Assembly (NCBI GenBank): GCA_029856145.1
Contig: JAHQWK010000025.1
Span: 1-64,000, forward strand
Direction of reading: 5' to 3'
DNA: 64,000 bases
From: Promethearchaeia archaeon
GTDB lineage: Archaea > Asgardarchaeota > Lokiarchaeia > Sigyniarchaeales > SOKP01
Every line of letters begins with the position of its first letter. Positions within the stretch are counted from its first letter, which is position 1. Positions 30,663-49,032 of this stretch are shown here, in pieces. Below the pieces are notes generated by a model, which saw only the letters and a program-made list of their open reading frames with translations, was not told where the DNA came from and ran no database searches. The position numbers and the translations under genes are program-made.

Positions 30663-32183
30663 ATGGTTAAAAAAAAAATAATTTTATTTTTATTAGTACC
30701 CCTCATAATTGTAAGTTCTATTGTTGCTGTTTTTTTATTTTTCCCAAAAGGAACTTCAGATAATCCAATTGAGTACAATTTTAGAACAAAATGGGACACG
30801 TCACGAATAAGTTTGGGTTCGAGTACTCCCAATCAAATCAAATTACCATTGGAATCAGGAGGAACCTATGATTTTACGGTCAATTGGGGTGATGAAACTA
30901 ACGACACGATAACGAGCTGGAACCAAGCAGAAAAAACGCATACATATTCTTCAGAAGGTGTTTACACGATTAGAATAAACGGAACAATTACTGGTTGGAG
31001 TTTTAATAATGGTGGAGATAGATTAAAACTACTTGAAATTCAAGAATGGCATGTTTTACGACTTGGAAATGCAGGATCCTATTTTTATGGATGTTCTAAT
31101 CTGAAGATTACAGCCAGTGATGTTTTAAATTTAACAGGAACATCTAATTTTTATAGTGCTTTTAGAGGTTGCAGTTCTATTAATAAAGTAAAAAGAATGA
31201 ATGAATGGGACACATCAAAGGTTATAAATATGAGCTACATGTTCTATAGTGCTAATCACTTCATCCAAGATATTGGCAACTGGAATGTTTCAAGCGTTAC
31301 AGACATGAGCTCTATGTTCCGAAATATTTTTTACTTCAACCAAGACATTAGTTCCTGGAATGTTTCAAGGGTTACAAATATGCAATATATGTTCTATGAG
31401 GTTTTTTCCTTTAACCAAGACATTGGCAACTGGAATGTTTCTAGGGTTACAAATATGCAGTTCATGTTCAGGGATGCTACTTCCTTCAACCAAGACATTG
31501 GTTCCTGGAATGTTTCTAGGGTTACAAATATGCAGTACATGTTCGCTAGTGCTACTTCCTTCAACCAAGACATTGGTTCCTGGAATGTTTCAAGCGTTAC
31601 AAATATGCAGTCAATGTTCGCTAGTGCTACTTCCTTCAACCAAGACATTGGTTCCTGGAATGTTTCAAGCGTTACAAATATGCAGTACATGTTCGCTAGT
31701 GCTACTTCCTTCAACCAAGACATTGGTTCCTGGAATGTTTCTAGGGTTACAAATATGCAGTACATGTTCGCTGCTACTTCCTTCAACCAAGACATTGGTT
31801 CCTGGAATGTTTCTAGGGTTACAAATATGCAGTTAATGTTCGCTAGTGCTATTTTCTTCAACCAAGACATTGGTTCCTGGAATGTTTCAAGCGTTACAAA
31901 TATGCAGTTAATGTTCGCTAGTGCTACTTCCTTCAACCAAGACATTGGTTCCTGGAATGTTTCAAGCGTTACAGAAATGGATTCAATGTTCCAAGGTGTA
32001 ACATTATCGACACTTAATTATGATAATTTATTGATTGGATGGTCGGCGTTAACCTTGCAAAATGGAGTCTCATTTAATGGAGGTAATTCTCAATATAGTA
32101 AGAGTCCAAGTCTCGCTGCTACAGCAAGAGCGAATATTATTAGTAGTTTTAATTGGTCGATTATAGATGGTGGACCGGTCTAG
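30663..32183 (+). CDS. BspA/DUF285-repeat surface protein
   Basis: A 506-residue extracytoplasmic protein. A hydrophobic N-terminal anchor or signal lies at about 5-27 ([20 protein letters not shown]). A PKD-like segment with [14 protein letters not shown] and [13 protein letters not shown] covers about 60-105. The rest is DUF285 repeats with the core [18 protein letters not shown], 25 residues each, ten in a row from residue 190. The end, with [11 protein letters not shown] and [17 protein letters not shown], is the family's normal C-terminal part. Such proteins bind other cells or surfaces in anaerobes. The start ATG 30663 is not preceded by a good Shine-Dalgarno. Confidence 0.9.
31230..31976 (+). 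repeat. Ten tandem 75-bp repeats inside the DUF285 gene
   Basis: Nine units of 75 bp and one of 72 bp (the eighth, where MFASATSF has become MFAATSF). Units four to ten are nearly identical in DNA, including third codon positions, while units one to three have diverged. This points to recent expansion by unequal exchange. Open frames seen on both strands here are by-products of the repeat. Confidence 0.92.
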
Positions 32184-33210: not shown

Positions 33211-34128
33211 ATGAAGACTCTAATTATAGCTCTTGGTGGGAATGCCCTTATCAGACCAGGTGAAGAGGGAACTGTCAAGCAAATGCTGAATAATCTAAGA
33301 GCTCCAATTGGGCAGATTGCGGAGCTCTCTCGAGATTATCAGATCATCATCACACATGGTAATGGGCCCATGGTGGGCTCACTCCTCCTACAACAAGAAG
33401 CCGCTCTCCATGTTATTAAGATGCCTTTACAAATATTAGTAGCAGAAACTCAAGGCCAGATTGGTTTCATGATTGAGAGTACATTGGATGAAGAGCTTAT
33501 GAAAATAGAACTCGATGAAGAAAAGCTTTTCATCACAGTTTTAACTTATGTAAAAGTTGATTCTAAAGATCCTGCTTTTAAGAATCCTACTAAACCAATT
33601 GGTCCTGCGTACCCTGTTCGTACAAAACAAGGTCAAGTGAAGACAGCTAAAGGATGGCGTCAGGTTGTTCCTTCCCCTAAACCAATAAAAATTTATCAAT
33701 GGCGTGAAATAAAGAAGTTAATGGAATTAGGAAGTTGGATTGTAATAGCGTGTGGTGGAGGAGGTATACCTGTAATAAAAGAAGCAAAAAGGTTGTATGG
33801 TGTCGAAGCAGTAATAGATAAAGACCTTGCTAGTTCAAAATTAGCTGAACAAGTAGGCGCAGAGATTCTTCTTATTGCTACTGATGTTGAGAAAGTTGCT
33901 CTTAATTATGGAACTCCTAATCAGAAAGATCTAGAAAAACTGTCTGTATCTGAAGCTAAAAAATATTTGGAAGAAAATCAATTCCCTGCTGGAAGTATGG
34001 GCCCAAAAATTCAAGCAGTAATTAATTTTATGGAAGCAGGGGGAGAAAAAGCAATTATTACTTCAATAGATAAAATTAAAGATGCTTTAGAAGGAAAAGC
34101 TGGAACTCATATTCTTTTAGATAATTAA
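33211..34128 (+). CDS. arcC: Carbamate kinase
   Basis: Makes ATP from carbamoyl phosphate and ADP. The 305-residue protein has all family marks: ALGGNALIRPGEEGT at the start, ITHGNGPMVGSLLLQ, the substrate region GPAYP, VIACGGGGIPV, LLIATDVEKV, and FPAGSMGPKIQAVINFMEAG near the end. It belongs functionally with the carbamoyltransferase at 28144, although 4.1 kb of surface and LRR genes separate them; a broken copy sits near the expected operon position. It is convergent with rocD, with only three bases between. Confidence 0.95.
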   Translation: MKTLIIALGGNALIRPGEEGTVKQMLNNLRAPIGQIAELSRDYQIIITHGNGPMVGSLLLQQEAALHVIKMPLQILVAETQGQIGFMIESTLDEELMKIELDEEKLFITVLTYVKVDSKDPAFKNPTKPIGPAYPVRTKQGQVKTAKGWRQVVPSPKPIKIYQWREIKKLMELGSWIVIACGGGGIPVIKEAKRLYGVEAVIDKDLASSKLAEQVGAEILLIATDVEKVALNYGTPNQKDLEKLSVSEAKKYLEENQFPAGSMGPKIQAVINFMEAGGEKAIITSIDKIKDALEGKAGTHILLDN

Positions 34129-34131
34129 TTT

Positions 34132-35394
34132 TTATTGCTTTACAAATACTTTTTCAATAATACCAATTGCCCAATCAATATCATCTTTTGTAATAACCAG
34201 GGGAGGGGCAAATCGAATTGTTGTTGAATGTGTATCTTTTGCTAAAATTCCATTATCCTTAAGTTCTTCGACAATTTGTCTAGCATCTTCGGTAAATTCA
34301 ACAGCGATTAATAAACCTTTTCCTCTTATTTCTTTAATTGGAATTTTAGTTTGTTTTTCAGCAACTTCTTTTAATCTTTTTATAAAATAAGCCCCCATTT
34401 CTTTAGCTCGTTCAGCAAGATTCTCGCGTAAGTGGATATCTATTGATTTCATTCCAATAGCGGCAGCTAAAGGATTTCCACCAAAGGTGCTACCATGAGT
34501 ACCTGGAGTTATAACATCTGGACCGATAATTTCTTTTGTACTAACACACGCAGACACAGGATATACCCCACCTCCTAGAGCTTTTCCTAGCAATAACATG
34601 TCTGGTTTCACATCTTCATGATCACAAGCAAAAAATTCTCCAGTTCTGCCAAATCCGGTTTGAATTTCATCTAAAACCATCAATACATTGTATTTTGTAC
34701 AAATTTCTCTTACCTTTCTTAGATATCCTTCTGGAGGAATTTTTACGCCAGCTTCTCCTTGAATTGGTTCAACTAAAAAAGCAGCTACTTTTTCAGGTCC
34801 CGTTTCTAATATTATATTTTCTAATTCTTCAGCATCTCCATAAGGTATAATAATAAAACCCGGTGTATAAGGCCCAAAATTACCATAGTAACGTGATGCA
34901 GAAATATCAGAACTAAAACCTACAATTGTAATAGTTCTCCCATGAAAGTTATCTCTACAGACAATTATTTTGGCTTCATTTTTAGGGATTTTTTTCTTTA
35001 TATACCCCCACGCTCTTGCCACTTTCAAACCGGTTGAGACCGCTTCTGTTCCAGTATTCATAGGAAGAGACATTATCCCCGAATTTGTAGGATCATTAAT
35101 GTGTGGTCCAATAACATCGGCTAACATCTTTAAAAATGGCCCCATCATGTTATTATGAAACGCACGAGAAGTTAATGTAACTATACTTGCTTGCTCCTTT
35201 AGAGTTGCTACAATTTCTGGATGACAGTGACCCGCATTATGACTTGAATATGCTGATAAACAATCCAAATACTTTTTACCTTCTGGATCGTAAACCCAAA
35301 CTCCTTCAGCTCTAGAAATTACCACTGGAATCGGGTGGTAATTATGAGCCGCATATTTGTTATCCATTTCAATGAATTCTTTTGAAGTTGGCAT
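34132..35394 (-). CDS. rocD: Ornithine aminotransferase (class III)
   Basis: PLP enzyme moving the delta-amino group of ornithine to 2-oxoglutarate, giving glutamate semialdehyde. The 420-residue sequence opens with YAAHNYHPIPVVISRAEGVW, characteristic of ornithine aminotransferase rather than acetylornithine enzymes. It then has SAYSSHNAGHCHPEI, NTGTEAVSTGLKVAR, FHGRTI, VLDEIQTGFGRTG and the PLP lysine in LLGKALGGGVYPVSA. Together with the carbamoyltransferase and carbamate kinase it makes an ornithine/citrulline use pathway. Promoter lies in the 350-base gap shared with the EamA-RAM gene. Confidence 0.92.
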   Translation of the reverse strand: MPTSKEFIEMDNKYAAHNYHPIPVVISRAEGVWVYDPEGKKYLDCLSAYSSHNAGHCHPEIVATLKEQASIVTLTSRAFHNNMMGPFLKMLADVIGPHINDPTNSGIMSLPMNTGTEAVSTGLKVARAWGYIKKKIPKNEAKIIVCRDNFHGRTITIVGFSSDISASRYYGNFGPYTPGFIIIPYGDAEELENIILETGPEKVAAFLVEPIQGEAGVKIPPEGYLRKVREICTKYNVLMVLDEIQTGFGRTGEFFACDHEDVKPDMLLLGKALGGGVYPVSACVSTKEIIGPDVITPGTHGSTFGGNPLAAAIGMKSIDIHLRENLAERAKEMGAYFIKRLKEVAEKQTKIPIKEIRGKGLLIAVEFTEDARQIVEELKDNGILAKDTHSTTIRFAPPLVITKDDIDWAIGIIEKVFVKQ

Positions 35395-35744: not shown

Positions 35745-37064
35745 ATGAAAAACAAAATGATTATTAACATAATTTTGGCAAATTTACTTTGGGGTTTTAT
35801 TCCCGTTATTGTAGAAGATTTATTTTTGGAAGTATCAATAATTATGGTAATTTTTTTAAGGTTTTTGATTTCTGGATTTGTATTGTTAATTATAGCTGTC
35901 ATTCTTGTATTAATTAATAATAGATTAACTCATAATGAATCCATATCACTTAGATTTCTATTTAAAAATCTATTACATAAAAATAGGAGATTTTTCAATA
36001 TGAAAAATATCTCATATTACCTATATTTGGGTTTTTTTGGTATAATACTTAATATTATTTTTTTCTTTTTAACGTTAAAAACTACATCAATAACATTTAC
36101 AATGGTTGGGTTTCTTTTAAGTGTAATTTTTATTGCTTTTTATGAAAAGGGTGTGAATTTTGAGAAATTTGATATTTTTAAGGTACTTTATATTATACTT
36201 TTATTTTTTACAATCATAATTTTGATATTTGTAGGAAGTACAGGAGCAGCATTAGAGGGTAGACCTGTAATGCTAAATGGGATAATCTATTTGTTAATTT
36301 TTAGCATAGCAATTTCATTTCTGTATATAGTTATCAACAGAGATGCATATTCATCTGAAGAAATGAAAATTGTTAACCAAAATAGGAATTATAAAATACC
36401 TCGATTTCTCATTAAAATGTCATTTTCTTTTTTAATAGGGATAGTTTGTATGATTCCACTTATCTTAATCATTTACATCTTACCAGTGGAAACTGATTTA
36501 ACCTATGAGATATCAACTTTTTTTGCTCAGTTTAGTAGTATTTTTTTGATTTTAGGGAGATGGGAGATGATTTTTTTAATGATTTTTTCAACAATTATCC
36601 CATATCTCTTAATTTTTATAGCAAATGTTAATTGGAAATCCGAGAATTTAACTTATAGTCAATGGAGTAGTATTTTAAATTTAATCGATCCTATGGGTTC
36701 GATTATTTTTTCAGTGATTTTTGTAAATGAGTATTTTCCTTACGAATTATTAATTATTATTATCTTTTTACTAGTCTTTACCTTCGTGATTCGATATTCT
36801 CATGAAGTAAAGAATTTAGTTCATGCAGTCCTTCTATTAAAATTGAAAAAAGGTTCAATTAATAGAATTTCTTTACGTATTTTTAAATATCATGGGATAA
36901 CTTCTACATATGCGTTAGTTGGAACTCATGATTTGTTGTTAAATGTAAAAATAAGTTCTATAAAAGATTTTTATAATCTCATAAATATAAGATTAAAACC
37001 TTTAAATGAAATTGAAGATATTGAAATTTTATTTATTAATAAAATTGTTAAAACACCAATTTAA
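35745..37064 (+). CDS. EamA/DMT-type transporter fused to a Lrp/AsnC ligand-binding (RAM) domain
   Basis: A 439-residue membrane protein. Residues 1 to about 350 have some ten hydrophobic helices in two halves, and start IILANLLWGFIPVIVEDLFL, the way EamA (drug/metabolite) transporters start. The second half contains ANVNWKSENLTYSQWSSILN and PMGSIIFSVIFVNEYFP, which suit the EamA end. Residues about 358-439 are a different, soluble domain: VHAVLLLKLKKGSINRISLR, YALVGTHDLLLNVKISSIKD, then RLKPLNEIEDIEILFI. This is the betaalphabetabetaalphabeta pattern of the amino-acid-binding domain of Lrp/AsnC regulators. The next gene encodes another such domain alone. A transporter gated by bound amino acid is a reasonable guess. 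Confidence 0.75.
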   Translation: MKNKMIINIILANLLWGFIPVIVEDLFLEVSIIMVIFLRFLISGFVLLIIAVILVLINNRLTHNESISLRFLFKNLLHKNRRFFNMKNISYYLYLGFFGIILNIIFFFLTLKTTSITFTMVGFLLSVIFIAFYEKGVNFEKFDIFKVLYIILLFFTIIILIFVGSTGAALEGRPVMLNGIIYLLIFSIAISFLYIVINRDAYSSEEMKIVNQNRNYKIPRFLIKMSFSFLIGIVCMIPLILIIYILPVETDLTYEISTFFAQFSSIFLILGRWEMIFLMIFSTIIPYLLIFIANVNWKSENLTYSQWSSILNLIDPMGSIIFSVIFVNEYFPYELLIIIIFLLVFTFVIRYSHEVKNLVHAVLLLKLKKGSINRISLRIFKYHGITSTYALVGTHDLLLNVKISSIKDFYNLINIRLKPLNEIEDIEILFINKIVKTPI

Positions 37065-37086
37065 TAAATGGGAGATGGTATAATAT

Positions 37087-37332
37087 ATGACAATCAAAGC
37101 AGTTATTTTATGTAAATTAGGGATTAGTGTAATAAAACCTGTAATTGAAGAATTGAAAAAAATTCCCCAAATAACAAAAGTGATGTCTTTAACAGGGGTT
37201 TATGATGCTTTAGCGGAAGTTATAGTAGAAACACCTGAGGAATTATATGAAATATTTGCAAATAAAATAGATATGATTGATGGAATCACAGCGTCTAATA
37301 CTCATATGGTAATGAAAGAATTTACTAAATAA
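37087..37332 (+). CDS. Stand-alone Lrp/AsnC ligand-binding (RAM) domain protein
   Basis: An 81-residue protein: TIKAVILCKLGISVIKPVIE, EELKKIPQITKVMSLTGVYD, ALAEVIVETPEELYEIF, then IDGITASNTHMVMKEF. This is the full Lrp/AsnC effector domain without the helix-turn-helix; such proteins form rings and bind amino acids. It lies 22 bases after the EamA-RAM gene with GGGAG before its ATG, so both are co-transcribed. It may form mixed oligomers with the transporter's own RAM domain. Convergent to kamE. Confidence 0.9.
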   Translation: MTIKAVILCKLGISVIKPVIEELKKIPQITKVMSLTGVYDALAEVIVETPEELYEIFANKIDMIDGITASNTHMVMKEFTK

Positions 37333-43659: not shown

Positions 43660-44700
43660 TTATTTGAGATATTTTTCATTGAATATGTTCCGCAATGTTT
43701 CTGATTCTCTTACTAAATCTAAGGCAATTTGAGCATGGTTCTTAGCATACCCACAACCAATTAACATTTTAACATCTTTCCCTATTCCTTCTGCTCCTAA
43801 GGCTGCTTTTGTAAAACTAGTTGCCATAGAAAAGAAATACACGATCCCTTCATTTTTAACTGGAAGTATACTGGACATTTCTGTGCTAGGAATACTCAAA
43901 CAATTTATTGAAATATCCACTTCCTTTCCATCATTCACCATATATACTTTATCTAAAACTTCTACAGGGTTTAATACATTAGTAATAATTATTTCATCAC
44001 AAAATTGAGTACTTTTAAGGAATTTTGCTCGTTTTTCATTTCTTGCTTGTCCGATAACTTTTCCATCCTTTCCAGCCATTTTTTTAGCCATTAATGAACA
44101 CATCAATCCTGATTTTCCTGTAGCCCCTAAAATTAATACACTATTTCCTGGTTTTACTAAATTCTTTACTTGAGCTGGAGCACCTGCTACATCAAGAATG
44201 GCCAATGCCAGAGTGTCCTCCATATCTTCAGGAAGTTTAGCATAAATTCCACTTTCAAAAAGAATTGCTTTTCCCGCAATTTCAACCCTATCAATATCAG
44301 GTTGAATTTTTAGAATTTTATCTATTCTAAGTGGTGTGAGGGAAAGTGAAACAAGTGTTGCGATTTTATCACCAACGGTTAAGTCAATTTTACCTTTTAA
44401 TGCATCACCAATTTCTTCTACATTTCCTATTAGCATTCCACCAGAGCCAGTCACCGGATTTTGCATTTTACCTTTTTCATTAACAATTTGCAGTATTTTT
44501 TCTTTAATTTTTTCAATATCGCCTTTAGCCTCTTCTTTTAGTTGTGTAAAACTGGCTGAATCAATATTTAAATAATCTACATCAATCAAGATTTCATTAT
44601 CATAAAGAGTCATATCGTTTGAAATCTTTATTGCAGGTTGAGGTAAAGCTCCCTTTGGTTCAATAACTCTATGTGTTCCATATCTATTTCCTTTCTTCAT
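43660..44700 (-). CDS. kdd: L-erythro-3,5-diaminohexanoate dehydrogenase
   Basis: Oxidatively deaminates 3,5-diaminohexanoate to 5-amino-3-oxohexanoate with NAD(P). The 346-residue sequence starts GNRYGTHRVIEPKGALPQPA, a known Kdd opening, and has the medium-chain-like dinucleotide motif SVLILGATGKSGLMCSLMAK. MQNPVTGSGGMLIG and the FFSMATSFTKAALGAEGIGK segment also fit. It follows kce by eight bases. It is convergent with the DtxR gene, 25 bases away. Confidence 0.93.
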   Translation of the reverse strand: MKKGNRYGTHRVIEPKGALPQPAIKISNDMTLYDNEILIDVDYLNIDSASFTQLKEEAKGDIEKIKEKILQIVNEKGKMQNPVTGSGGMLIGNVEEIGDALKGKIDLTVGDKIATLVSLSLTPLRIDKILKIQPDIDRVEIAGKAILFESGIYAKLPEDMEDTLALAILDVAGAPAQVKNLVKPGNSVLILGATGKSGLMCSLMAKKMAGKDGKVIGQARNEKRAKFLKSTQFCDEIIITNVLNPVEVLDKVYMVNDGKEVDISINCLSIPSTEMSSILPVKNEGIVYFFSMATSFTKAALGAEGIGKDVKMLIGCGYAKNHAQIALDLVRESETLRNIFNEKYLK

Positions 44701-44708
44701 ATTACATC

Positions 44709-45542
44709 TTATTCATTAATTTTTAGTCCTAGTATATTTCTTGCTTCATGAGGAGAAGCAATTTCTCTTCCTAATTCTTTAGCAATTCTAACTGCTTTTT
44801 CCACTAATTCTCCATTAGATTTTGCTAACACTCCTTTTGATAGATACACGTTATCTTCAAACCCTACTCTCGCATGCCCCCCCATTATAATAGCTAATGT
44901 AACCATTGGAAATTCATACTTTCCAATCGCACCAACACAAAATGTCGAATTTTCAGGAATACTGTTCACTAAAAAATTTAAATCTCTTGTTGAAGCATTT
45001 ATACCACCAATTACTCCTAACATAAAATTAAAGTGCATTGGATCCTTGATATACGCCATATTCCGTAATTTTAAAGCCATATCAACCATTCCCTTATCAA
45101 AACATTCTAACTCATATTTAATTCCACGTTTATTCATTTCCTCAGCAAAATAAATTATTGTATTTTCTGTATTTACAAAAATATCATTACCTCCAAAATT
45201 CATAGTTCCACAATCAAGTGTTGCCATTTCTGGAGGTGGATCTAAATAAATGGGCTGGAGTCTTTCTTCATTAGTCATTCCTACAGCTCCACCAGTTGAA
45301 GGTAATATAATTACATCAGGACATCTTTTTCTAATTTCCCCAATGCAAACTTGAAATCTTTCTTTGTTTTGAGTAGGGGTTCCATCATCTTCTCGGACAT
45401 GTAAATGGATTATGCTAGCTCCCGATTTATAAGCTGATTCTGCTTCTCTTCCTATTTCCTCCACTGTATAAGGAATATTTGGGTTACTTTCTTTTGTAAC
45501 TTCTGCCCCACATATAGCAGCAGTAATAATCAATTTTTCCAT
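44709..45542 (-). CDS. kce: 3-keto-5-aminohexanoate cleavage enzyme
   Basis: BKACE-family zinc enzyme that combines 5-amino-3-oxohexanoate with acetyl-CoA to give acetoacetate and 3-aminobutyryl-CoA. Zn-binding IIHLHVRED is at about 45-53; LPSTGGAVGMTNEERLQP, ATLDCGTMNFG, ELECFDKGM, GGHARVGFEDNVYLSKG and the C-terminal NILGL are family-typical. Starting at ATG 45542 gives 277 residues; a GTG at 45551 would add three. The BKACE family has many substrates, but the neighbours kdd and kamDE fix the assignment. Confidence 0.94.
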   Translation of the reverse strand: MEKLIITAAICGAEVTKESNPNIPYTVEEIGREAESAYKSGASIIHLHVREDDGTPTQNKERFQVCIGEIRKRCPDVIILPSTGGAVGMTNEERLQPIYLDPPPEMATLDCGTMNFGGNDIFVNTENTIIYFAEEMNKRGIKYELECFDKGMVDMALKLRNMAYIKDPMHFNFMLGVIGGINASTRDLNFLVNSIPENSTFCVGAIGKYEFPMVTLAIIMGGHARVGFEDNVYLSKGVLAKSNGELVEKAVRIAKELGREIASPHEARNILGLKINE

Positions 45543-45585
45543 TAATTTCACACAGTATTGTTTATAAAAATAAAACGTGAAAAAA

Positions 45586-46839
45586 TTATAATAACTTCTT
45601 AGCTTTTTTTAAAGCCTCATTTATCATATTTGCTGCAAAATCTAAATCTTCTTCTGAGTGACGATAACAAATATAACCATGATGGTAAGGTTGAAGGAAT
45701 ATTTTTCTTCGAATCAGTTGTCTATAGAATTCGTCTCTAAGTTTCCTATATAGAAAGTCTTTATCCGGAATAAAGGTTATATATGGCATCCAAGGTTCTC
45801 CAGAATAAATACATGGGACACCACTATCTTCAATATACTCTTTAATTCGCTTTGCAAATTGCTTCCCTTTTTGATGTATATTATCTAAAACTTTTTCGCG
45901 TTCTAGTATTTCAATCGTTTTAAGAGATGCGATCTGAGTCAGACTATTAGGGAAAAAGGTTGAACTTAAAAAGACTTTTTCTAATAAAACATCCATAAAT
46001 TCTGCTTTACCAACAAGAGTGCTTATCGGGTATCCATTTCCCATAGCCTTACCAAACGCTGCAAGATCAGGAACAACACCAAACATTTTTTGTGCTCCAC
46101 CCATATCTACTCTAAAACCTGTTCTTATCTCATCATATATTAATAAAGCATTATTATCACTTGCTAATTCACGAAGACCTTCTAGATATCCTGGTTTTGG
46201 CATCTCAACCTCTCGACCGCCAGGAGTATGTATAGGATTTACAATAATAGCAGCAATTTCATCCTTATTTTTTTTAAATAAGATTTCAACTTCTTCTAGA
46301 TTATTAAACTCAAATTCATAAAAATCCTCATATAATTTCTTAGGTATTCCCGCTTCGATTCCATGAACCTCACTGAAGGCGTCATACCAACCATGGTATC
46401 CACAACTAAGAATCTTTATTTTTTTTGTGTATGCTCTAGCAACTCTTATTGCTGCTGTTGTTGCATCCGTTCCCATCTTCATTAATACCATCTTTTCACA
46501 GCAAGGTATCAAATCTCTTATTTTTTTTGCTAGTTTATTTTGAACTTGTTGAGTTAGAGACATACAGAACCCCTTATTACGTATTTGCTCAATAACAGCG
46601 TTATCTATTTCTTCTTCCCTGTGACCAATGATAATTGGGCCGTAAGCGCACAACATATCAATATATTCATTACCATCTACATCAATTACTTTTCCACCTT
46701 TTGCAGATTCAAAGAATATAGGATATTCTCCCTCAACAAAATTATATGGACGTCTTATACCTAAAATTGCTCCTGGAATTACATTCAATGCCTCTTCATA
46801 TAATTTGAACGTATTATTAAGATTTAATTTATCAGACAA
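45586..46839 (-). CDS. kat: Class III aminotransferase, probably 3-aminobutyryl-CoA transaminase (Kat-like)
   Basis: A 417-residue PLP enzyme of the class III / glutamate-semialdehyde-aminomutase branch: GGKVIDVDGNEYIDMLCAYG, KMGTDATTAAIRVARAYT, YHGWYD, LIYDEIRTGFR, and the PLP lysine in AAFGKAMGNGYPIS. It heads the run kat-kce-kdd. In some lysine fermenters (known from Cloacamonas acidaminovorans) an acyl-CoA beta-transaminase of this family replaces the ammonia lyase Kal, turning 3-aminobutyryl-CoA into acetoacetyl-CoA. No Kal gene is seen here, so this role is preferred. Glutamate-1-semialdehyde aminomutase is unlikely without haem genes. Confidence 0.75.
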   Translation of the reverse strand: MSDKLNLNNTFKLYEEALNVIPGAILGIRRPYNFVEGEYPIFFESAKGGKVIDVDGNEYIDMLCAYGPIIIGHREEEIDNAVIEQIRNKGFCMSLTQQVQNKLAKKIRDLIPCCEKMVLMKMGTDATTAAIRVARAYTKKIKILSCGYHGWYDAFSEVHGIEAGIPKKLYEDFYEFEFNNLEEVEILFKKNKDEIAAIIVNPIHTPGGREVEMPKPGYLEGLRELASDNNALLIYDEIRTGFRVDMGGAQKMFGVVPDLAAFGKAMGNGYPISTLVGKAEFMDVLLEKVFLSSTFFPNSLTQIASLKTIEILEREKVLDNIHQKGKQFAKRIKEYIEDSGVPCIYSGEPWMPYITFIPDKDFLYRKLRDEFYRQLIRRKIFLQPYHHGYICYRHSEEDLDFAANMINEALKKAKKLL

Positions 46840-47284: not shown

Positions 47285-48865
47285 CTACCAAACTAAGTTC
47301 GATATAATATCTTTTGCCGTATCAGCTTGTTTCTTACTTAAAATTTTACGAATCCTTAGATCATTAATAGCATCTTCAAGACGTGTATCTAAGTTTTTTG
47401 TTTCCATCAAATTATTTTTATCGGATTGTGTTTCAACTAATTCAATCATTGCATTGTCTTTATTCATTAAATCTCGTAATTTTTGTCTGAATCCCGCTTT
47501 AACTTTCGTTTCTACTTTTTTCCCTTTGTCAATTAATATGGGTAGTACAGGAGCTCTTTCAGTGGTTCTCTTTGTATTAAGATCGGTAAAGAAGAATATA
47601 TATATCGGGATACCTACAATGACATTTTGAGTCTTGATCTCAAGAGTGTAGTTATTAAAGAAGTTTTGAACATCAGTCATCTCTCTATCTTTAATAGATT
47701 CAATATTGTCCAAACTAGATTGTTTTTCTGTTTTTATTTGAGCAATTGTACCTTCAGCAGAAGTTAAATCTTTACTAAGTCCACTATGCTTTGCTTCAAT
47801 TTGTTTTTCAACCTCTGCTTTTTTCCGTTCTAACTCTCTTAACTTCTGTTGTTTTGTTTTTTCGAGATCAGAGATTTCACGTTGAACATTTTTTCTTAGT
47901 TGAGCAATTTCATTATTATATCTACTGATAGAATTTCCTAATTCTCTATATTTTACATTAATATCCTTTAAACCTTCTTCTACTAAGAATAGATCACGGT
48001 TATTAATTGCATTTTTCAAGCCATCAACACTATTTTTAATTGAGCTAAGATTATTATTCAATTCTCCTGTTTTATCATTTATTTTATATTTTCCTAGTTT
48101 TACTAATTCTTCTGGAGATTTTTCAATTTCTCGTTCTTTTTCTGCTTGTATTTCCTTATTTAATATTGCGAGTTGTTTCTCTTCTTCACCTGTATCTACC
48201 TTAGTATCTCTAATTTTGTCTACTTCTTGCCCTCCTTTTTGTATCCATCTCTCACATAATTTTATAATAGCATCTCCAAACGTATCAAGCATTTTAACAT
48301 CTTTCTGTGAAACATATACTGGGATTTCTGTTGCTATTTTTGTCTGATTAACACTTTTAGTAATAGGTCCTCCTTCTAGTATAAAATAAGGAGTAGAATG
48401 AGAACTTAAACCATATTGGTTAAGGAAAAAATTCTGAAAAAAACCTACTTCATTGGTATTAAATAAAGCCTCTTGTATAACAGTGCCCCTTTTAAAGTTT
48501 TTTGAACGTCTTAGATATGTATTATTATAAGTCTGTAATGAATTTAAAAAAGATACAGGATCTGCTCCTTTAATAACATTTTCAGGTCTAGGTGGCATTT
48601 GAGCAAACTCTCCTACACTTAACTTCTCTTGTTTATTTAAGAGATAACTACAGACACAAGCTCTTGTATCACTTAATGGTATTAAACGAACTGGCCAGAA
48701 TGCTGTTGAAATTTTTGATATTTTTCCTAATTTTTTAAGACTTTTACCATATATACTAATACAATCAATTAAACCCATCGCTAATTCATTTAATAGAGCC
48801 GCTTGGCTACGTGCAGGATTCACTTCGCCCATATTAATTAAATAAGGTACTACTTTATCAACCAT
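47285..48865 (-). CDS. Large coiled-coil protein of unknown function
   Basis: A soluble protein of about 526 residues. The N-terminal 190 residues form a globular part (MVDKVVPYLINMGEVNPARS, then STAFWPVRLIPLSDTRACVC and YFILEGGPITKSVNQTKIAT). Long coiled coils follow at about 225-270 and 300-400, and there is a small beta-rich block near 420-450 (NVIVGIPIYIFFFTDLNTKR). The start is ATG 48865, seven bases after AGTGA; a TTG at 48907 would add 14 residues. I do not recognise the family. The design, a globular head with a long coil, could be structural or chromosome- or membrane-associated. Confidence 0.6.
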   Translation of the reverse strand: MVDKVVPYLINMGEVNPARSQAALLNELAMGLIDCISIYGKSLKKLGKISKISTAFWPVRLIPLSDTRACVCSYLLNKQEKLSVGEFAQMPPRPENVIKGADPVSFLNSLQTYNNTYLRRSKNFKRGTVIQEALFNTNEVGFFQNFFLNQYGLSSHSTPYFILEGGPITKSVNQTKIATEIPVYVSQKDVKMLDTFGDAIIKLCERWIQKGGQEVDKIRDTKVDTGEEEKQLAILNKEIQAEKEREIEKSPEELVKLGKYKINDKTGELNNNLSSIKNSVDGLKNAINNRDLFLVEEGLKDINVKYRELGNSISRYNNEIAQLRKNVQREISDLEKTKQQKLRELERKKAEVEKQIEAKHSGLSKDLTSAEGTIAQIKTEKQSSLDNIESIKDREMTDVQNFFNNYTLEIKTQNVIVGIPIYIFFFTDLNTKRTTERAPVLPILIDKGKKVETKVKAGFRQKLRDLMNKDNAMIELVETQSDKNNLMETKNLDTRLEDAINDLRIRKILSKKQADTAKDIISNLVW

Positions 48866-49032
48866 ATTTGATTCACTTGATATTTCTATATTTATTTTTA
48901 ATATCAAGATAATAATTAAAGTTATGCTTTTGAGTTAATTAAATAACATCTCAATTAAAATTTTAAATAATGTAAGAGAAAATTAATATCATGGAATAAA
49001 GATAATTTCTGAAAATCATAAGTGTTGAAATA

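What the first reader, a model, noticed from the sequence alone, without database searches (positions are those of the whole stretch)
35745..37332. EamA transporter fused to an amino-acid-sensing RAM domain, next to a lone RAM protein and the lysine pathway
Seen: about 350 residues of membrane helices joined to an 80-residue Lrp/AsnC effector domain, then after 22 bases an 81-residue protein made only of that domain. Known: RAM domains bind amino acids and oligomerise; EamA proteins often export amino acids and metabolites. Inference: a transporter that opens or closes when lysine or ornithine is bound, with the lone RAM protein as a shared or antagonist subunit. The flanking genes are ornithine aminotransferase and the kam cluster. 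I do not recall a described system of this design.
Basis: partly seen in the sequence, partly recalled or inferred. Interest (0 to 1): 0.72.

Follow-up and report, generated by a model that had tools for sequence, protein, structure and literature searches.

The report
Asgard transporter with amino-acid-sensor pair
Across the Asgard archaea, a membrane transporter carries a built-in amino-acid-sensing domain and almost always has, in the next gene, a second free copy of that domain, which suggests a transporter switched directly by amino acids and a possible job for free-standing sensor proteins whose role is unclear.

Summary
Window 35745-37064 encodes a 439-aa EamA/DMT transporter whose last helix runs straight into a C-terminal Lrp/AsnC effector (RAM) domain; 22 bases later an 81-aa protein is a RAM domain alone. 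It is not local. Profile searches of all 228 held Asgard genomes find the fusion in 134: a Loki-type form A (49) and a divergent form B in other families (85). A stand-alone RAM gene lies beside it, same strand, in 81 of 82 informative form-B loci and 46 of 50 form-A loci, downstream in some lineages and upstream in others. The partner RAMs form one clade, split exactly as A and B are. Fused RAMs are basic (mean net charge +4 to +5), partners acidic (-3 to -5), in 64 of 65 pairs. Both are under purifying selection. I read this as a two-subunit DMT transporter gated by a hetero-oligomeric cytosolic RAM amino-acid sensor. The lysine/ornithine link is weaker: those genes flank it only in some Lokiarchaeal genera. 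Transport direction, ligand and physical association are inferred, not shown. No published description was found in the library searched. Non-Asgard genomes could not be searched.

The parts
35745..37064 (+). EamA/DMT transporter with C-terminal RAM domain (439 aa), form A
   Evidence: Pfam EamA 2.9e-8 and AsnC_trans_reg 5e-5; AlphaFold pLDDT 87.9; Foldseek; homologues
35745..36815 (+). membrane domain, residues 1-357: 10 TM helices plus one short helix (251-270) between TM7 and TM8; the last helix 333-357 is continuous with the RAM domain and carries R350 (nearly invariant) and E354 (invariant)
   Evidence: model secondary structure, loops and charges, conserved columns
36816..37061 (+). fused RAM domain, residues 358-439; G393 invariant and D396 nearly invariant in the GxYD-type loop
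37070..37078 (+). Shine-Dalgarno-like GGGAGATGG, 8 nt before the lone-RAM start codon
   Evidence: read directly from the sequence
37087..37332 (+). stand-alone RAM protein, 81 aa (partner); G37 invariant, D40 nearly invariant
   Evidence: Pfam 3.3e-14; model pLDDT 96; conserved columns; Foldseek to DM1, STS042, FL11
34132..35394 (-). ornithine aminotransferase, divergent neighbour (context)
   Evidence: NCBIfam TIGR01885, 525.8 bits
37380..42110 (-). lysine fermentation genes: lysine 5,6-aminomutase beta and alpha, KamB reactivase, lysine 2,3-aminomutase (context)
   Evidence: NCBIfam equivalogs
33211..34128 (+). carbamate kinase (context)
   Evidence: TIGR00746, 368.1 bits
28144..29076 (+). 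aspartate/ornithine carbamoyltransferase family (context)
   Evidence: Pfam

Best explanation
The pair is a two-subunit, amino-acid-gated DMT-superfamily transporter. Shown by sequence and model: a 10-helix EamA-type carrier whose last helix continues directly into a RAM domain, with a separately encoded RAM protein conserved beside it. Inferred: the RAM domain is cytosolic; the basic tethered RAM and the acidic free RAM assemble into the dimers or rings usual for this fold; a cytosolic amino acid binds at the interface between them and changes the assembly; the change is passed through helix 10 to open or close the carrier. The most likely use is a relief exporter that opens when an amino acid piles up during amino-acid fermentation. 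In the genus of the window the ligand may be lysine, ornithine or a relative; elsewhere it is probably another amino acid.
For: Domain matches and models. Fusion in 49 form-A and 85 form-B Asgard genomes out of 228. Partner RAM adjacent on the same strand in 75 of 85 form-B loci by coordinates, gap no more than 60 bp, 36 downstream and 39 upstream, plus 6 more on inspection, 3 cut by contig ends and 1 apparent exception; 46 of 50 form-A loci. Tree of RAM domains: partner RAMs of A (47) and of B (29) are each one clade and sister to each other (0.76); fused form-B RAMs form one clade and most fused form-A RAMs another. Net charge: fused +4.95 (A) and +3.88 (B), partner -3.38 and -4.69; fused above partner in 64 of 65 pairs. 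dN/dS about 0.1 for the membrane part, 0.23-0.33 for the fused RAM, 0.07-0.19 for the partner. RAM proteins bind amino acids at dimer-dimer interfaces and can form hetero-octamers, as FL11 with stand-alone DM1 (PMC2995911). An EamA protein exports lysine (MglE, PMC9048822). Fused regulatory domains are a known way to gate transporters (PMC10710835). Six K/R in loop 62-87 fit a cytosolic C-terminus.
Against: No ligand, transport or physical complex is shown. The opposite charges could reflect membrane proximity of the fused RAM rather than pairing. The fused RAM evolves faster than the rest and its Pfam score is marginal. Most sequenced members of the window's own genus (13 of 19) lack the fused gene, so it is dispensable there. 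In family f4 the lone RAM is 2-5 kb away in three genomes and on another contig in a fourth. The neighbourhood does not point to one substrate.
Confidence: 0.55

Rival explanations
1. Membrane signal relay: the transporter (or a non-transporting relative) holds the lone RAM at the membrane and releases it when amino acid is bound or translocated; the freed RAM then joins Lrp/AsnC transcription factors and changes gene expression, as stand-alone DM1 joins FL11 in vitro.
For: Stand-alone RAM proteins hetero-oligomerise with full-length Lrp-type regulators (PMC2995911). The genome holds about a dozen other RAM proteins, mostly with HTH domains.
Against: The partner clade is tied to the transporter, not to any Lrp gene. 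Opposite charges fit pairing with the fused RAM, though other partners are not excluded.
Confidence: 0.17
2. Structural role only: the RAM pair fixes the oligomeric state or stability of the transporter and binds no ligand.
For: RAM is an oligomerisation fold; the fused RAM is less constrained (dN/dS 0.23-0.33); some Lrp-type proteins show no amino-acid response (PMC2995911).
Against: The glycine and aspartate of the GxYD-type loop are conserved in both fused and lone RAMs.
Confidence: 0.12
3. Transinhibited importer (a variant of the best explanation): the same sensor, but the carrier takes an amino acid or related solute up and RAM binding shuts it off, as the methionine-binding C2 domain does in MetNI.
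For: Closest solved relatives include the choline importer LicB; transinhibition through cytosolic domains is established (PMC10710835).
Against: Most 10-TM DME-type proteins are thought to be exporters (general knowledge of the family); neighbours in the window are catabolic, which fits either direction.
Confidence: 0.2
4. Chance: an ordinary EamA gene read together with or beside unrelated RAM genes, or a mis-assembly.
For: None found beyond the marginal Pfam score of the fused RAM.
Against: Conserved in independent assemblies across many Asgard families with both gene orders; purifying selection.
Confidence: 0.01

Closest known systems
Lrp/AsnC RAM (effector) domain; stand-alone RAM proteins DM1 and STS042
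   Same: Same fold and GxYD-type loop; best solved matches by sequence and structure.
   Different: Here one RAM is fused to a membrane carrier and the other is its neighbour gene; no DNA-binding domain in either.
EamA / 10-TM DME family of the DMT superfamily (YddG, LicB, lysine exporter MglE)
   Same: Pfam EamA match and fold match to YddG and LicB.
   Different: About 80 extra residues forming a RAM domain; form B matches EamA only weakly or not at all in Pfam.
MetNI methionine transporter with C2 regulatory domain; ModABC
   Same: Works alike in principle: a cytosolic C-terminal domain binds the ligand at a domain interface and changes transport (PMC10710835).
   Different: ABC transporters with sensors made of two identical domains; here a secondary carrier with a sensor probably made of two different subunits.
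PA2577-PA2576 of Pseudomonas (Lrp/AsnC regulator controlling an EamA gene; PMC8707732, listed)
   Same: Same two protein families functionally linked.
   Different: There the link is transcriptional, by a DNA-binding Lrp protein; here the sensor is on the transporter itself.

Membership tests
EamA / DMT superfamily | EamA Pfam match above cut-off | tested here: met
   34.5 bits against cut-off 28.2 for the window protein; form B weak, 5 of 12 members
EamA / DMT superfamily | 10-TM DMT fold | tested here: met
   model with 10 TM helices; Foldseek to LicB, Vrg4, YddG, probability 1.00, TM-score by target about 0.6-0.7
EamA / DMT superfamily | transport of a small solute | not testable with these tools
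   needs vesicles or cells
Lrp/AsnC effector (RAM) domain | sequence profile match | tested here: met
   lone RAM 3.3e-14; fused RAM 5e-5, just under cut-off in the protein scan, over it in the genome scan; 20 of 22 form-A members match at E 0.01
Lrp/AsnC effector (RAM) domain | RAM fold | tested here: met
   DM1 superposes at 0.8 A on both models
Lrp/AsnC effector (RAM) domain | amino-acid binding at dimer-dimer interface | not testable with these tools
   loop residues conserved, binding not measured
Lrp/AsnC transcription factors | N-terminal HTH domain | tested here: not met
   absent in both proteins: neither is an Lrp transcription factor
Transporter gated by fused ligand-binding domain (MetNI-like in working) | ligand-dependent change of transport | not tested
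   analogy of layout only

The most novel reading that the evidence does not exclude
An ancestral Asgard two-subunit transporter in which a basic RAM domain on the last helix and an acidic stand-alone RAM protein build a shared amino-acid site that gates a DMT carrier: a DMT transporter gated by a RAM sensor, and a membrane function for stand-alone RAM proteins.
Probability: 0.4. Interest if true: 0.77.

Novelty: new variant of a known kind. Interest (0 to 1): 0.64.

Why it matters
The 2010 review of archaeal Lrp proteins says the physiological significance of stand-alone RAM proteins is unclear (PMC2995911). Here a large clade of them is tied, across the Asgard archaea, to one transporter. 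It would show a transcriptional amino-acid sensor moved onto a transporter, a fast post-translational form of feast/famine control, in the archaea closest to eukaryotes. It makes a precise binding and gating hypothesis testable with two small genes.

Tried and rejected
Lysine-specific reading for the whole family: rejected, because only the window's genus and some sister genera have the ornithine/lysine genes alongside. Assembly artefact: rejected. Pooling all lone RAMs: rejected, because a separate 77-aa stand-alone RAM class is not beside transporters (L187, L192, L194, L199). Plasmids and viral contigs: no relative of the fusion; weak single-RAM hits only for the lone protein. One ancestral fusion versus two for forms A and B: unresolved, since the profile match (E 5.4e-12) leans on the RAM part, form A against the f8 form B aligns in the RAM domain only, and fused A and B clades are not joined in the RAM tree. 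In-frame stops flagged in some lone-RAM hits of family f20 appear to be terminal stops, judged from one locus (L173).

Full report
Observation. The window lies in a Lokiarchaeal genome (closest named relatives are Lokiarchaeota MAGs). ORF 35745-37064 is 439 aa; ORF 37087-37332 is 81 aa, 22 bases downstream on the same strand, with GGGAGATGG 8 nt before its start. Pfam gives EamA on residues 4-161 and AsnC_trans_reg on 365-431 of the first and on 16-78 of the second. The pair is bounded by genes of the other strand: the ornithine aminotransferase gene diverges from it upstream and the kam genes converge on it downstream.

Structure. With a 22-sequence family alignment the fusion is modelled at mean pLDDT 87.9 and pTM 0.85. 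Its membrane part resembles LicB, Vrg4, YddG and SLC35B1, and its C-terminal part the stand-alone RAM protein DM1 at 0.8 A. Helix 333-357 ends one residue before the first RAM strand, so movement in the RAM domain could be passed on directly. R350 and E354 at this joint are nearly invariant and invariant. The basic loop 62-87 (6 K/R) supports a cytosolic C-terminus. The lone RAM is modelled at pLDDT 96 and matches DM1, STS042 and FL11.

Distribution. A profile of the Loki-type fusion (form A) finds it, whole or in part, in 49 of 228 Asgard genomes; a 50th match, in G201, covers only the RAM part and belongs to form B. A lone-RAM profile then led to a second, divergent fusion (form B) in other Asgard families, present in 85 genomes. 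No genome is in both lists, and together they make 134 of 228, a lower bound because only the first few candidates per genome are scored. Form A sits in the Lokiarchaeal class plus two genomes outside it; form B in many other families. Within the window's genus 6 of 19 genomes have the fusion, and the other 13 have no strong partner RAM either.

The partner gene. For form B, 75 of 85 fusions have a lone RAM on the same strand with a gap of at most 60 bp (median 30), 36 downstream and 39 upstream. Inspecting the other ten adds six (one of them 218 bp away), three end at contig ends, and one is an apparent exception. For form A, by my count over the fetched loci, 46 of 50 have the partner adjacent; in the four exceptions, all family f4, a lone RAM lies 2-5 kb away in three and on another contig in one. 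Some genomes have two partner genes (L057, L058, L062, L067) or RAM genes on both sides (L068, L170, L184, L190). Keeping the association while changing the order is a strong sign of joint function.

Evolution. In a tree of RAM domains the partner RAMs of form A (47) and form B (29) are each monophyletic (0.86, 0.98) and sister (0.76). Fused form-B RAMs are one clade (0.94), most fused form-A RAMs another (0.87), and the 77-aa stand-alone RAMs are separate (0.9). With only 79 columns, deep nodes are weak, and the lone RAMs were found with a profile built from form-A partner RAMs, which favours similar sequences. Pairwise dN/dS within the genus is about 0.1 for the membrane part, 0.23-0.33 for the fused RAM and 0.07-0.19 for the lone RAM. 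Fused RAMs are basic and partner RAMs acidic, in both forms: the fused one is the more positive in 64 of 65 pairs.

Mechanism. RAM proteins form dimers and higher rings, bind amino acids between dimers, and can mix: FL11 and stand-alone DM1 form hetero-octamers (PMC2995911). A membrane-tethered RAM with a regularly co-encoded free RAM therefore most likely builds a mixed sensor. Transporters gated by fused cytosolic domains are known, MetNI being the closest parallel, and the review read here does not mention Lrp, AsnC or EamA (PMC10710835). A survey of Asgard transporters counts many DMT proteins; the passages found by a term search do not mention this fusion (PMC7997004). I favour an exporter opened by a cytosolic amino acid; an importer closed by it is the nearest rival, and a membrane relay to Lrp regulators the next.

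Substrate. In the window's genus and some sister genera (L044, L050, L114-L122) the pair sits among ornithine aminotransferase, carbamate kinase, a carbamoyltransferase and lysine aminomutase genes, in varying combinations, which makes lysine, ornithine or beta-lysine reasonable first guesses there. Elsewhere the neighbours differ, so the general statement should be 'an amino acid', itself inferred from the RAM family.

Limits. Genomes outside the Asgard phylum could not be searched with distant profiles. No complex prediction was possible. Literature was limited to an open library.

Noticed in passing
window 47285-48907: A 540-aa protein without any Pfam match at 1e-5 whose homologue recurs a few kb from the transporter pair in other Lokiarchaeal genera (for example L045-L049, L051, L054, L112, L113).
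   Followed up: partly
window 30663-32183: 506-aa secreted-looking protein of near-identical repeats ([25 protein letters not shown]), probably DUF285/BspA-like (from memory, not searched).
   Followed up: no
L081 919-1767 (own genome, contig C30): Protein that looks like receiver domain, HTH and RAM in one chain, i.e. an Lrp-type response regulator.
   Followed up: no
L073, L187, L192, L194, L199: A second class of stand-alone RAM proteins (about 77 aa), not beside a transporter, present in the window's genome too.
   Followed up: partly
L176, L178, L183, L193, L196, L197: In family f8 the form-B pair is followed by an ABC ATPase and ABC-2 permease pair in many genera (identified by Pfam in L176, by size and TM count elsewhere); a possible functional partner.
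   Followed up: partly
L170 1935-2186, L184 5401-5652, L190 3-224: A third RAM gene on the other side of form B in three genomes groups apart from the normal partners (with divergent fused RAMs, support 0.8).
   Followed up: partly
window 43660-46839: Beta-keto acid cleavage enzyme, class-III aminotransferase and an unassigned 346-aa protein continue the lysine fermentation cluster.
   Followed up: no
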